Part shown: positions 4,653 to 48,204 of the stretch, piece by piece | Position numbering within the stretch: position 1 is the first letter of the stretch | Layout: every line of letters starts with the position of its first letter | Assembly (NCBI RefSeq): GCF_007753095.1 | Contig: NZ_CP036348.1 | Location: forward strand, 7,169,411 to 7,233,410 | Length of the DNA: 64,000 nucleotides | Direction of reading: 5' to 3' | Source: Rosistilla carotiformis | GTDB taxonomy: Bacteria; Planctomycetota; Planctomycetia; Pirellulales; Pirellulaceae | Notes under the pieces: generated by a model | Database searches by the model: none | What the model was told of the DNA's origin: nothing | What the model saw: the letters and a program-made list of their open reading frames with translations, nothing else | Position numbers and translations under genes: made by a program

Positions 4653-5129
4653 TCACCGATCGCCGGCCCAGGGCAATCGATCCCAGATCTCACGCACCGC
4701 CGAAAGATTGTCGTCGCGCTGATTTTGCTGCCAATATCGCCGCACCATCGCAGCATGATTAGCCAAGGAAACCGGCCGATCGACGACGCCAGCGACGCCC
4801 AGTTCGCGCAAGTTCAGTTCGACTTCGCCCGCGATCCCGCGGGGCACGATCGCCCCCTGCGACAACGCCGCGAACTGCAGCGGGCGATTTGCCCCGCGAG
4901 CCCCAGCCCGCGAGATCGACTCCAGAACCGGGCCCGCCCCAGCCGCCGGAAGCTCCCATAACACAACCGCAGGCACCTGCTGCGCGAGCGCCGCCAGACA
5001 CGCCTCGGGACGTTCGATGCTGCGGATCTCCAAGACATCATCGGCCGCCGGCAACATCTGCACAGCAAAATGATCAACCGCAGGGCGCCAACGATTCCCC
5101 GACTCACAAAGCAGCCAAACGCATCGCAT
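4653..5129 (-). CDS. Hypothetical protein, possible degenerate receiver fold
   Basis: 158 aa, not recognised by family. It starts 4 nt after the stop of the sigma-54-activator-like gene, so the two are almost certainly co-transcribed. The pattern of hydrophobic strands (CVWLLCES, VLEIRSIE, AVVLWELP, PLQFAALS, GVAGVVDRP) alternating with helices, ending in a strand, a short GVAGVVDRPVS motif and a helix, resembles a response-regulator receiver fold. The usual acidic pocket near the N-terminus and a clear phospho-accepting Asp are not evident, so it would be a pseudo-receiver. That is inference from the pattern only; coding status rests on spacing, length and codon use. Confidence 0.6.
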   Translation of the reverse strand: MRCVWLLCESGNRWRPAVDHFAVQMLPAADDVLEIRSIERPEACLAALAQQVPAVVLWELPAAGAGPVLESISRAGARGANRPLQFAALSQGAIVPRGIAGEVELNLRELGVAGVVDRPVSLANHAAMVRRYWQQNQRDDNLSAVREIWDRLPWAGDR

Positions 5130-39483: not shown

Positions 39484-40902
39484 GTGACCAGAACTCGCCC
39501 GTTTGCAAGCCTCCCATTTTCGATCGCCTTGCTTTTACTGGCCGCTTTCGCATCGCCAGCCATTGCCCAGCCGAACGCGGCGTGGCGATTCACGCCCGCC
39601 GATTTCAGCTACTCCCCGGGCCCTGCCGACAATCCGCTCAAAGGCTTGGTTCCCTACCAGGATCCGCCGGCGGATCGGTTTCCGTACAGCATGGAGTTCA
39701 ATTATCTGCCGCTTGCCAAGCTGGTGACCGGGCCGGGGCAATACGATTGGCAACCGATGGATGCGATGCTCGAAGACATCGCGTCGCGCGGCCGGCAGAC
39801 CGTGGTCCGTGTCTTCTTGGAATACCCGGGCAGGAAAAACCTGATCCCACAATTTCTGATCGACGGCGGATTGAAGGTTCATTATTACATGAACACCAAC
39901 ACCGCGCCGCATCCACCGGCCGCGATCGAGACTCCCGACTACGAAGATCCCAACCTGCGGAAAACGATGACCGATTTCATCGCCGCCTGGGGCGCACGCT
40001 ACGACGGCGATCCTCGCCTGGCCTACATCACCGCAGGGCTGTTGGGGACGTGGGGCGAATGGCACACCTATCCGAAGACCGAACTGTGGGCCAGCAAGCA
40101 GGTGCAGCGTGAGATCTTGGATGCCTATGTCGCCGCGTTCCCAAAGACGCCGGTTCTGCTGCGTTATCCCGCCGGCCCCGATGACGAACTCTACTACGAC
40201 AGCACCACCTATCCCTTCGGATACCACGACGATTCGTTCGCTCATTCGACACTCCCCACCGGGCGGAAGCAAGACGATTGGTACTTCTGGCCCAAGATGT
40301 TGCACGCTGGTTTGTCGCAGCGTTGGCAGACCGCGCCGATCGGAGGCGAGATTCGGCCGGAGGTCTGGGGCTGCTGTTTCGACAAAGAACCTTGCACCGC
40401 CGCGTCGCAGAGTTTCGATGAGTGCCGCGACGTAACGCACGCGACTTGGATGATGGACACGGGGTTGAGTCGCAAGAAAGCCGATGCGGATCGTTATCGG
40501 CGGGCGATCGAGGCGGTTCAGAAAATGGGCTACGACCTGCAAGTTGTCGATGCGGCGGCGAAGCGTCAGCCCGACGGATCGGTCAAGGTTCAAGTGACGG
40601 TCGAAAACCGCGGGATCGCTCCGTTTTATCACCATGGCTGGACCGCCCGTTTGCAGATCGCCAGCGATCAAAAGTTGATTGGGGAACTGGCGACCGATTG
40701 GTCGCCACGCATGATCCAACCGGGAGCGCGGAAGACGTTCGAACAAACGCTCGATCCGACAAAGCTGCCCGCCGGCCAGCACCAACTGCGATTGCAGATC
40801 CCCAACCCGATGCCCTCAGGCAAACCACTCCGCTTCGCCAACCAAGCTGTCGATTCCCACAGCGGCGCGCTGACGCTCGGCACCTTCGCGGTTGCGGGCT
40901 GA
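39484..40902 (+). CDS. Secreted DUF4832-type glycoside-hydrolase-like protein
   Basis: 472 aa from a GTG at 39484, preceded by GGAG at 39473-39476 (7-nt spacing). The start yields a signal peptide (TRTRPFASLPFSIALLLLA, cleavage near AIAQ) and is better than any upstream ATG. The sequence has the DUF4874/DUF4832 pattern: NPLKGLVPYQDPP, FPYSMEFNYLPLAKL, VVRVFLEYPG, AYITAGLLGTWGEWHTY, and a C-terminal beta-domain with VTVENRGIAPFYHHGW. The TIM-barrel part looks like a glycoside hydrolase, with Glu in GTWGEWH a plausible catalytic residue, but no activity is assigned to the family. Confidence 0.82.
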   Translation: MTRTRPFASLPFSIALLLLAAFASPAIAQPNAAWRFTPADFSYSPGPADNPLKGLVPYQDPPADRFPYSMEFNYLPLAKLVTGPGQYDWQPMDAMLEDIASRGRQTVVRVFLEYPGRKNLIPQFLIDGGLKVHYYMNTNTAPHPPAAIETPDYEDPNLRKTMTDFIAAWGARYDGDPRLAYITAGLLGTWGEWHTYPKTELWASKQVQREILDAYVAAFPKTPVLLRYPAGPDDELYYDSTTYPFGYHDDSFAHSTLPTGRKQDDWYFWPKMLHAGLSQRWQTAPIGGEIRPEVWGCCFDKEPCTAASQSFDECRDVTHATWMMDTGLSRKKADADRYRRAIEAVQKMGYDLQVVDAAAKRQPDGSVKVQVTVENRGIAPFYHHGWTARLQIASDQKLIGELATDWSPRMIQPGARKTFEQTLDPTKLPAGQHQLRLQIPNPMPSGKPLRFANQAVDSHSGALTLGTFAVAG

Positions 40903-41358
40903 GTCGCAGGACGCTCGACCTTATTTTGTTAACTTAGAGGGGAAGGTTGGCAGATTGATGGGGGCAGAATGATATGCATTCGACACCGCACATTCTGCCT
41001 CAATCATTCTGCCTCAATCATTCTGCCTCCATCATTCTGCCTCCATCATTCTGCCTCCATCATTCTGCCTCCATCATTCTGCCTCCATCATTCTGCCTCC
41101 ATCATTCTGCCTCCATCATTCTGCCTCAATCATTCTGCCTCAATCATTCTGCCTCAATCATTCTGCCTCAATCATTCTGCCTCAATCATTCTGCCTCAAT
41201 CATTCTGCCTCAATCATTCTGCCTCAATCATTCTGCCTCAATCATTCTGCCTCAATCATTCTGCCTCAATCATTCTGCCTCAATCATTCTGCCTCAATCA
41301 TTCTGCCCCCGTTACTTCTACCAACATCATTCCGCCAACCTTTGGCAATGAGGTCACT
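40903..41358. other. Intergenic region dominated by a 14-bp tandem array
   Basis: 456 bp between the DUF4832 gene and the TTG start of the LysR-type gene. The central 350 bp are the repeat array and its flanking inverted repeat (listed separately). Unique sequence remains only at 40903-40959 and in the last 48 bp before the regulator. In this arrangement either the promoter lies upstream of the array, giving a leader of over 350 nt, or within or after it. Confidence 0.7.
40960..41310. repeat. 14-bp tandem array bounded by a perfect 14-bp inverted repeat
   Basis: From 40991 the unit CATTCTGCCTCAAT is repeated 22 times without spacers, with a partial 23rd at 41299. Units 3-9 carry CCAT instead of CAAT at their end; units 1-2 and 10-22 carry CAAT, so the variants form one contiguous block. 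The sequence GGGGGCAGAATGAT at 40960-40973 is the exact reverse complement of 41297-41310, so the array is enclosed by inverted repeats, and the left arm is complementary to 11 bp of most units. Every plus frame through the array is open (a 14-residue repeat [14 protein letters not shown]), whereas every minus frame is closed by TGA. Confidence 0.97.
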
Positions 41359-42267
41359 TTGGAACTCGATCAGCTACGCAATTTCTTGAGAGTCGCCGAG
41401 TTTGGCAACTTCACCCGCGCTGCCGATGCGATTGGACTCTCTCAACCGGCGCTCAGTCGTTCGATCGCGCGGCTCGAAGAGGAACTGGGGCAGCCGGTTT
41501 TTGAACGCCAACCGCGGCTGATCGCGCTGACCGACGCGGGGCACATCCTGCACGATAGGGCTCGCCAGATCTTAGCGTTGGTCGACGACGTCCATCGCGA
41601 GATCACCGACGATGGCGAGACCGGGACGATCCGGCTGGCAGGCATCCCGACGATCGTCCCCTATTTCCTGCCGCCGCTGCTGCGTGAATTCGGCCAAGCC
41701 TGTCCCGAGGCGACGGTTCGCGTGCAGGAGGATACGACCGAGGTCCTACTGAAACAACTGGCCGATGGCGAGACCGACCTCGCGATCCTCGCTCGCCCGC
41801 TGGAAGCGAAGCATCTGGAATTCGAAGACCTGTTCGAAGAGGAACTGCTGTTGGTGATGTCGCCACAACATCCGCTGCGCGATCAGTCCGAGATCCACTT
41901 GGATGACCTCGACGCGATGCCCTTTGTACTGTTGGGCGAAGCGCACTGCTTGACGCGAAACATCGTGCAATTCTGCCAACAGAAGTCGATGCAACCGGTC
42001 TCGGTCGAACGGACCAGCCAACTGGCATCGGTCCAGGAACTGGTCACCCTAGGACACGGGATCAGCTTGATCCCCGCGATGGCTCGGGCATTGGACGCTT
42101 CGGATCGGCGGATCTACCGATCGCTCGCCGGCAACCAACCGACGCGTCAGATCGTGATGGCCTGGAATCCCTACCGGTTCCAGAGCAAGCTAGTGCTCCG
42201 ATTCCAAGAGTGCCTGCGGTCGTTCGTGCAGAACCATCCGCCGGCGGCTGAGCAACGCGAGGACTAG
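41359..42267 (+). CDS. LysR-type transcriptional regulator (OxyR/CynR-like)
   Basis: 302 aa from a TTG at 41359, preceded by GAGG at 41351-41354. This gives the standard LysR start [17 protein letters not shown]; the upstream frame is only the repeat array. The N-terminal winged helix-turn-helix ([19 protein letters not shown], residues about 18-36) is followed by the substrate-binding-like effector domain ([32 protein letters not shown]). Two cysteines occur in the effector domain, at AHCLTRN and VQFCQQ, close enough in sequence to be of interest for redox sensing as in OxyR, but this is inference. Target genes are unknown; the neighbours are secreted-protein and ABC-transporter genes. Confidence 0.9.
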
Positions 42268-47858: not shown

Positions 47859-48204
47859 ATCATTCGTCGATTGGTAGCATCGGGCACGTCTGCCCAAACG
47901 CGGCGTTTTGCAGCGGAAAGGCGAAACCGCCCATCCTACTTGGAATTTGTGAGTGCCCCCAGAGAAAGCGGGATGCTGGGGGTCGCACCATTATGCCAAG
48001 ATTTGCCCGCCGATAGCAGGCCCGGTCCCAATGCCGCACCGCAAATAGCTGGAGTCGACGTTTTCGCTGGAGTCGAGGCTTTAGCCGACGAAATGTTGGA
48101 GTGGAGGCTTTAGCCGACGAATTACTGAAGCCGAGGCTTCAGCCGAACGGGGGTTGGAGTTGCGCGTATTTCGGCTGAAGCCTCCACTCCAGCGAATACG
48201 CGAC
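47859..48204. other. Intergenic region with palindromic repeats
   Basis: 346 bp upstream of purM and downstream of the transhydrogenase gene. About 150 bp at 48047-48196 are repeat units (listed separately). The rest shows no gene; the purM promoter must lie in the first 150 bp. Confidence 0.55.
48047..48196. repeat. Cluster of direct and inverted GGAGTnGAGGCTTtAGCC repeats
   Basis: Units of the type GGAGTCGAGGCTTTAGCCG occur at 48069, 48098 and, with divergence, 48050 and 48125, followed by an inverted copy at about 48171-48194 (CGGCTGAAGCCTCCACTCCAGC). Direct units are spaced by about 29 bp. The end copies can pair to form a long hairpin. The pattern fits a dispersed palindromic repeat of this lineage. 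Confidence 0.7.

What the first reader, a model, noticed from the sequence alone, without database searches (positions are those of the whole stretch)
40960..41310. Tandem 14-bp array enclosed by a perfect 14-bp inverted repeat
Twenty-two full copies of a 14-bp unit, plus a partial copy, stand directly before a LysR-type regulator. They are enclosed by inverted repeats (40960-40973 and 41297-41310) that pair perfectly. The left arm is also complementary to 11 bp of most units, so the region could fold in many alternative hairpins. A contiguous block of seven variant units (CCAT type) shows that copies spread locally by duplication. This is not a CRISPR, and I know of no named element with this design. 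Such an array could set promoter spacing, bind a repeated DNA-binding protein or template variable copy number.
Basis: seen in the sequence. Interest (0 to 1): 0.72.

Follow-up and report, generated by a model that had tools for sequence, protein, structure and literature searches.

The report
Palindrome arm stretched into tandem array
The array is real, but it is one arm of a small hairpin-forming DNA element, scattered through this marine bacterium and its relatives, that has been copied over and over in place; the same spot in two sister species holds only the short hairpin.

Summary
Observation confirmed: 22 perfect-register 14-bp units at 40991-41298 plus a partial unit, with the stated inverted repeat. 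It is not unique. The genome (length identical to Rosistilla carotiformis Poly24) holds a dispersed palindrome family whose arms typically carry two direct copies of GGCAGAATGAT. At this locus both congeners held have the short hairpin (about 77 bp) in the same place, before the same regulator gene; the array is that hairpin's right arm, amplified. Seven orthologous loci show such contrasts. Arrays use their own local unit, and the longest show contiguous blocks of variants, so copies arise in place, most likely by replication slippage at a hairpin already carrying two direct repeats. A covariance model matches 51 of 241 family genomes, with lineage-specific units and expanded arms in two other genera. 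Tests for REP/RAYT or MITE membership failed: no doubled motif beside 47 Y1 transposase loci, no consistent tag, no target duplication. By crude gene calls the elements lie between genes, with a modest excess in convergent gaps. No role in LysR regulation was shown. New variant of a known kind (REPIN-like palindromes plus STAR-like arrays); what spreads the family is unknown.

The parts
40943..40973 (+). Left arm of the palindrome (AAGGTTGGCAGATTGATGGGGGCAGAATGAT): two direct units; one base differs from the sister species (GATTGAT for GAATGAT)
   Evidence: conserved in G001 and G002
40974..40990 (+). Loop / spacer between the arms
   Evidence: comparison with the sister hairpins; folds
40991..41298 (+). 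Amplified right arm: 22 full 14-bp units, CATTCTGCCTC(A/C)AT
41019..41116 (+). Contiguous block of seven CCAT-type units (units 3-9)
41299..41310 (+).
41311..41342 (+). Outer end of the right arm, with a degenerate unit and the conserved CATTCCGCCAACCTT that can pair with the start of the left arm
   Evidence: (I8)
41359..42267 (+). LysR-type regulator, TTG start, GAGG at 41350-41353
39529..40902 (+). Upstream gene with DUF4832 (start from a crude gene call); the palindrome starts about 40 bp after its stop codon

Best explanation
The locus is a member of a Pirellulaceae family of short dispersed intergenic palindromes. The usual element has two direct copies of an 11-nt motif (GGCAGAATGAT here), about 14-16 nt apart, in each arm, a loop of about 10-110 nt, and can fold into an imperfect hairpin of about 25-30 bp. 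The right arm has about two units in the sister species and 22 here. Shown: the family, the orthologous short hairpins, array-versus-no-array contrasts at seven orthologous loci, and local homogeneous units, in contiguous variant blocks in the longest arrays. Inferred: the mechanism. The fork stalls at the hairpin and the nascent strand re-pairs with the neighbouring 14-bp direct copy, adding units; once an array exists, ordinary slippage expands and shrinks it. The left arm can pair with any neighbouring pair of units, which keeps offering slipped registers. The array itself is probably near-neutral. The basic hairpin may act at gene 3' ends (terminator or mRNA end), as known REPs are thought to; that is not shown. 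How the family spreads is unknown.
For: Same site in both congeners held is a short hairpin with no array; LysR protein 95% identical, adjoining DNA 94-96% identical. Contrasts at seven orthologous loci, units in the expanded arm (G000 / others): J (this one) 22 / about 2 / about 2; I 9 / 1-2 / 1-2; C 2 / 8; B 17+7 / 2; E1 2 / 2 / 5; H1 8 / 1-2; H2 9 / 2 / 9. Arrays have their own spacer and period (13, 14 or 15 bp in the genus). In the four arrays with the most units and variants, variants lie in blocks: observed/expected runs 4/11.9 (window), 5/11.3, 3/10.4, 5/20.3, none of 2000 shuffles as low. No unit-private change in the 308 bp of full units (in a register two bases earlier, counts one singleton, the boundary unit), where 2.5% change per lineage would give about 7.7 (chance of none about 5e-4; the rate is my assumption): turnover since the species split. 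Sister hairpins fold as ssDNA better than all 200 shuffles (z -2.96, -4.91). Polymerase slippage on hairpin templates with direct repeats is established (PMC4134008, abstract and introduction read; deletions are what was measured).
Against: Slippage is inferred; unequal recombination would leave similar traces. Direction at J is not fixed by parsimony: if G002 is R. ulvae, carotiformis may be the outgroup (PMC8303584 passages), so loss of an array in the other two is possible, and H2 (9 / 2 / 9) looks like a loss or a parallel gain. Three array loci in the genus have no partner arm in the listing (D in L120, L137, L138), so a palindrome is not always present. The whole 404-nt region folds no better than shuffles (z 0.18, 54 of 100 as good). 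Within the genus the two arms of an element are not more alike than arms of different elements (0.816 against 0.829, 22 elements), so pairing itself is not shown to be selected. Shorter or mixed arrays do not show significant blocks (L104, L105, L112, L113, L137, L163, L165 and one of L124). The exact copy number rests on one assembly.
Confidence: 0.82

Rival explanations
1. The array is a regulatory device for the downstream LysR gene: repeated binding sites, promoter spacing, or a copy-number switch (the units hold no stop in any + frame, and ATG 40969 is in frame with LysR at 22 units, so adding or losing units would switch a long N-terminal extension on and off).
For: Array lies directly before LysR; stop-free in all three + frames; ATG 40969 is the only in-frame start in the open frame upstream of TTG 41359. 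One sister (L116) also has an in-frame ATG upstream, inside its hairpin. Roles in physiology or translation have been proposed for other intergenic repeats (PMC3532100, PMC4679880 abstracts).
Against: Both sisters keep the same LysR without any array, and one (L111) has no in-frame upstream start. Six homologues start at the codon equal to TTG 41359. Other array loci lie beside other genes. One in three copy numbers is in frame by chance. Only one weak promoter-like match (0.4 expected).
Confidence: 0.07
2. The palindromes are non-autonomous mobile elements (REPIN- or MITE-like) spread by a transposase acting in trans, and the array is a by-product of that activity.
For: Many dispersed copies in different intergenic sites; tandem clusters that include flanking DNA at E, B, G and K, as described for REPINs (PMC3116915 passages); lineage-specific motif variants in other genera with both arms changed together (0.878 own against 0.735 cross, 0 of 5000 permutations, 24 elements).
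Against: No doubled unit beside 47 Y1 transposase loci (17 of 17 in the genus, 30 of 59 rows in seven other genomes). No excess of flanking direct repeats in 57 elements (158 of 500 permutations reach it) and no tag except 3 copies at one locus. No clean empty site in the orthologous pairs looked at (A, D and F undecided), while the same kind of comparison did show one for a different 405-bp repeat.
Confidence: 0.35
3. The hairpins are transcription terminators or mRNA 3'-end structures kept by selection, and arrays are tolerated damage to them.
For: Of 42 element clusters with both neighbours called (of 56), 18 lie between convergent genes, 23 between tandem genes, 1 between divergent genes, against 7, 31 and 7 of 45 gaps in the window (Fisher p 0.008 for convergent; deduplicated by hand 10 of 27, p 0.048). 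Hairpins retained at the orthologous sites that could be read clearly.
Against: No terminator-like site with a T tract at this locus. Gene calls are crude and disagreed between orthologues at G, H1, H2 and H3. The arms show no pairing-specific similarity within the genus.
Confidence: 0.3
4. Assembly artefact.
For: Read data were not available; one genome per species.
Against: Arrays of the same kind in three separately assembled genomes of the genus and in two other genera.
Confidence: 0.02

Closest known systems
REPINs / REP-BIME elements with RAYT transposases (PMC3116915 and PMC3733652, passages read; PMC2817692, start of abstract in a search listing)
   Same: Short dispersed extragenic palindromes, two inverted conserved ends separated by a spacer, hairpin-forming, about 70-110 bp between ends, sometimes in tandem clusters with flanking DNA.
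   Different: Each arm here is two direct copies of a non-palindromic motif and does not fold on itself; no consistent GTAG/CGTC tag; no Y1 transposase beside the elements examined; about a dozen places in this genome at the search depth, where REPs usually exceed 100 copies; one arm can become a long array.
STAR elements of Staphylococcus (PMC3532100, abstract and passages read)
   Same: 14-bp direct repeats in intergenic DNA, locus-specific sequence, copy number differs between strains, slippage proposed.
   Different: STAR motifs are interspersed with at least 40 bp of other sequence, and the passages I read do not describe them as palindrome arms; the sequence is unrelated.
MITEs
   Same: Short dispersed units with inverted ends and no gene.
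   Different: No target-site duplication and no transposase-bearing relative found here.
Intergenic TAACTGA heptamer repeats (PMC4679880, abstract read)
   Same: Direct-repeat arrays between genes, some long, with no known origin.
   Different: 7-bp unit, mostly just before start codons in the genome described, not palindromic.
TIR-associated tyrosine transposase repeats (TIRYT, PMC3733652, passages read; figures not held)
   Same: Dispersed repeats with inverted ends, found in genomes that may lack classic REPs; R. baltica is named there as rich in tyrosine transposase genes with flanking repeats.
   Different: Defined by flanking a tyrosine transposase gene, which was not found for this motif; whether an R. 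baltica family in that paper is the same could not be checked.

Membership tests
REP/REPIN | Dispersed, intergenic, inverted pair able to form a hairpin | tested here: met
   none of 56 clusters was enclosed by a called gene, though crude gene calls ran into an element at two loci (L116, L124)
REP/REPIN | GTAG or CGTC tag at one end of each unit | tested here: not met
   3 of 57 elements, all at one locus
REP/REPIN | Each REP is itself a small palindrome | tested here: not met
   isolated arm folds at -0.1 to -1.1 kcal/mol on one strand and 0 on the other, single unit 0 (RNA parameters)
REP/REPIN | A RAYT (Y1_Tnp) gene flanked by the same repeat | tested here: not met
   47 Y1_Tnp loci, none with the doubled motif within up to 1.5 kb; 29 of the 59 rows were not fetched, and divergent motif forms could be missed
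MITE | Terminal inverted repeats | tested here: met
MITE | Target-site duplication | tested here: not met
   mean longest flanking repeat 0.86 nt against 0.77 permuted, 57 elements
MITE | Related autonomous element with a transposase | tested here: inconclusive
   In the fetched stretches most wide-spaced pairs fall inside tandem clusters; L115 (3.8 kb, between two separate elements), L166 (1.0 kb), L167 (1.3 kb), L176 (0.6 kb) and L182 (0.6 kb) also have wide pairs, whose content was not examined; whole genomes were not scanned for this
CRISPR | Unique spacers between repeats | tested here: not met
   units abut head to tail
STAR-type intergenic direct repeats | Motifs separated by at least 40 bp | tested here: not met
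   units abut
Intrinsic terminator | Stem-loop followed by a T tract | tested here: not met
   none found in 40850-41450; other copies not scanned
Known Rfam RNA family | Match at the gathering score | tested here: not met
   0 in L111, L116 and L119; in window 40850-41450, ten microRNA-type hairpin matches, all far below their gathering scores
Minisatellite made by local duplication | Homogeneous local unit, blocks of variants, copy number differing between relatives | tested here: met

The most novel reading that the evidence does not exclude
Pirellulaceae carry a so far unnamed family of four-unit palindromes (two direct motifs in each arm) that is recognised by a lineage-specific protein unrelated to RAYTs, a new transposase or a chromosome-organising protein, which drives both the matched change of all four units between genera and the growth of single arms into arrays.
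Probability: 0.15. Interest if true: 0.72.

Novelty: new variant of a known kind. Interest (0 to 1): 0.45.

Why it matters
It gives a natural series of minisatellites at different stages: the same hairpins with 2, 5, 8, 9 or 22 units in an arm at orthologous sites of closely related, cultured species. That makes hairpin-seeded repeat expansion testable in bacteria. It also points to a palindrome family across Pirellulaceae, for which I found no name, whose mode of spread is unknown and is not explained by neighbouring RAYTs.

Tried and rejected
Rejected: (1) a unique designed element: searches show a dispersed family. (2) RAYT in cis. (3) GTAG/CGTC REPs and MITE target duplications. (4) Known RNA family. 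(5) A viral carrier: exact doubled 26-mer absent from viral contigs (exact form only). (6) Arm-to-arm covariation within the genus: tested, not found (at least three of the 22 rows, those with loop -2, are misparsed). (7) Empty sites: loci A and D have rearranged flanks and no clear junction; at F the G001 match of the left flank ends about 100 bp before the arm; all three undecided. K was compared with L102 at only 67-78% identity and left out of the ortholog count.

Led nowhere: looking for the hairpin upstream of six non-genus LysR homologues (none seen by eye in 330 bp); literature on such repeats in planctomycetes. Not done: reads, strain variation, expression. Model R1 had no shuffled-genome control. 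Its hits outside the family (8 of 392 genomes, own genome being the ninth) are mixed: of the eight loci printed, L216, L217, L218 and L223 show GCARAAT-type units, L220 and L221 look different, and L219 and L222 showed no such unit in the stretch printed. L173, L166 and L178 were also not centred in the print (L173 and L166 were printed again).

Rows dropped before counts: for the hand-deduplicated gene context I kept one row per orthologous locus, dropped L102 and L112 as possible orthologues of K and L104, dropped L160 and L161 as orthologues of L159, and chose one call where orthologues disagreed (G, H1, H2, H3). In one search L160 and L161 were left out.

Full report
WHAT IS THERE. The array is real and exactly where stated. 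TRF gives 40991-41307, period 14, 22.6 copies, 99% match, no indels; in register there are 22 full units with one variable site, and the seven CCAT units are consecutive. The perfect 14-nt inverted repeat exists, but the left arm pairs almost as well with 22 other two-unit stretches, and the outer boundary of the structure is the longer imperfect repeat 40943-40969 / 41316-41342. The array lies in the 456-bp gap between a DUF4832 gene (stop 40902) and a LysR gene whose start is most likely TTG 41359.

WHICH ORGANISM. The window lies in a single contig of 7,437,004 bp, the size printed for Rosistilla carotiformis Poly24 in PMC7716947; the congener G001 (7,250,512 bp) has the size printed for R. 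oblonga CA51 (passages and part of Table 1 read; the column order is taken from the strain order in the text). G002 (7,475,804 bp) is probably R. ulvae by exclusion; that is inference.

NOT UNIQUE. A relaxed search of the same genome with the 27-nt arm gives 37 forward and 43 reverse matches and none for the reversed control pattern. They group into about a dozen places. The common layout is two units facing right, a loop, two units facing left: 49 elements were listed in the fetched stretches of the three congeners and the window, 24 with 2+2 units, 12 with 2+1 or 1+2, the rest with an expanded arm. Several places carry long arrays of 13, 14 or 15 bp units.

THE SISTER SPECIES. LysR is 95% identical in both congeners and the element sits at the same place, but as a short hairpin with no array; the gap from the previous stop codon to TTG is 133 and 148 bp there. 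Six further loci with an array in one species have an orthologue with alignable flanks in another, and in each at least one species is unexpanded: I, B, C, E1, H1 and H2. So arrays are not conserved, hairpins are: the element was present at the orthologous sites that could be read clearly, in three species at J, I, E, H2 and H3 and in two at B, C, G and H1. Loci A, D and F have rearranged flanks and are undecided. As a positive control, the same kind of comparison did reveal a clean insertion of an unrelated 405-bp repeat.

HOW IT GROWS. Arrays repeat their own local spacer, so most were not copied from one another (L103 and L137 of G001 share a unit type; the H2 arrays in L124 and L115 are orthologues). 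Variants sit in blocks: none of 2000 shuffles had so few runs in the window array, L118, L120 and L103; other arrays with more than one unit type are too short or too mixed to show this. The window array has no unit-private change, against about 7.7 expected at 2.5% per lineage (the rate is my assumption from 94-96% flank identity). Hence expansion, or at least turnover, after the species split. Hairpins of the sister species fold better than all shuffles as single-stranded DNA, while the whole window region does not. A hairpin next to direct copies is the arrangement on which polymerase slippage has been demonstrated, though there with deletions (PMC4134008, abstract and introduction). I therefore hold slippage at the palindrome as the likeliest mechanism; it is inferred. 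Direction at this locus is open on parsimony alone, because passages of PMC8303584 suggest that carotiformis is the more distant species.

HOW WIDE. A near-exact pattern of the doubled unit is found in 9 of 98 relatives, own genome included: 79 and 53 matches in two of the three congeners, 10 in the third, 12 in G025 of another genus, one or two in the other five. A covariance model of 12 unexpanded copies matches 51 of 241 family genomes at E up to 0.01, 35 of 159 good-quality ones, 21 of 68 genera, own genome included. The loci read show the same plan with other letters, such as GGCAGGAAGAT, GGCAGAAAGAT, GGCAAAACGAT or GACAGAAAAAT. In those genera the two arms of an element agree better than arms of different elements (0.878 against 0.735, 0 of 5000 permutations); this can be simple family ancestry. 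Within Rosistilla there is no such effect. Expanded arms also occur in G254 (L163) and G101 (L165). In a phylum-wide draw 9 of 392 genomes match at E up to 0.001, own included.

WHAT IT IS NOT. None of 47 Y1 transposase loci examined has the doubled motif nearby; one search did show single loose matches in 3 of 17. There is no consistent tag and no target duplication, no Rfam family, no terminator with a T tract here, and the exact doubled 26-mer is not in viral contigs. So it works like a REPIN-type intergenic palindrome in layout, but it is not shown to be a member of the REP/RAYT group. PMC3733652 names several repeat families in R. baltica; its figures were not available, so overlap with one of them is not excluded.

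PLACE AND ROLE. With a crude codon-score gene finder, 42 of 56 clusters had both neighbours called: 18 convergent, 23 tandem, 1 divergent; the window's 45 gaps are 7, 31 and 7 (Fisher p 0.008 for convergent and 0.059 for divergent). After removing orthologues by hand, 10 of 27 were convergent (p 0.048); gene calls differed between orthologues at G, H1, H2 and H3, where I chose. This leans towards gene 3' ends. Nothing ties the array to LysR control. The reading frame from ATG 40969 through the stop-free array into LysR is open; one sister also has an in-frame upstream ATG and the other has none, and six homologues start at the codon equal to TTG 41359.

VERDICT. Real, explained at the level of origin; function of the basic hairpin and mode of spread open; a new variant of a known kind.

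Noticed in passing
G000:C1:547401-547810 (L117 4401-4810); empty site in G002 near L150 1600: A dispersed repeat of about 405 bp with inverted ends CTGTCAGTTATACG / CGTATAACTGACAG, 23 full or partial matches in G001, and a clean filled/empty pair with a likely short target duplication: a probable MITE. A relative appears to have inserted at locus I of G002 (L136).
   Followed up: partly
L106, L107, L108, L113, L121, L126, L165: A second level of tandem duplication: the whole palindrome plus flanking DNA repeated about 3-5 times per locus, as reported for REPIN clusters.
   Followed up: partly
L102, L107, L108, L113, L121 (inner units); also L172, L173, L174: In 8 of 22 genus elements the inner units next to the loop end GAT (left) against AAT (right, read as its complement), giving a G-T wobble on one strand only; this would give an otherwise symmetric element a polarity.
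   Followed up: no
G000 L125 about 4729-4788 and many places in G001: Another short dispersed repeat (around AAGCCTGGGACGCGAGCCCCAGG) beside locus I, matching about 20 places in G001.
   Followed up: no
window 48067-48146: A 29-bp tandem repeat (CTGGAGTCGAGGCTTTAGCCGACGAAATA, 2.8 copies) that resembles a sequence seen several times near locus F (L109, L122), so possibly another dispersed family.
   Followed up: no
window 40969-42267: The array has no stop codon in any + frame and ATG 40969 is in frame with LysR, so copy-number change would alter a potential N-terminal extension.
   Followed up: partly
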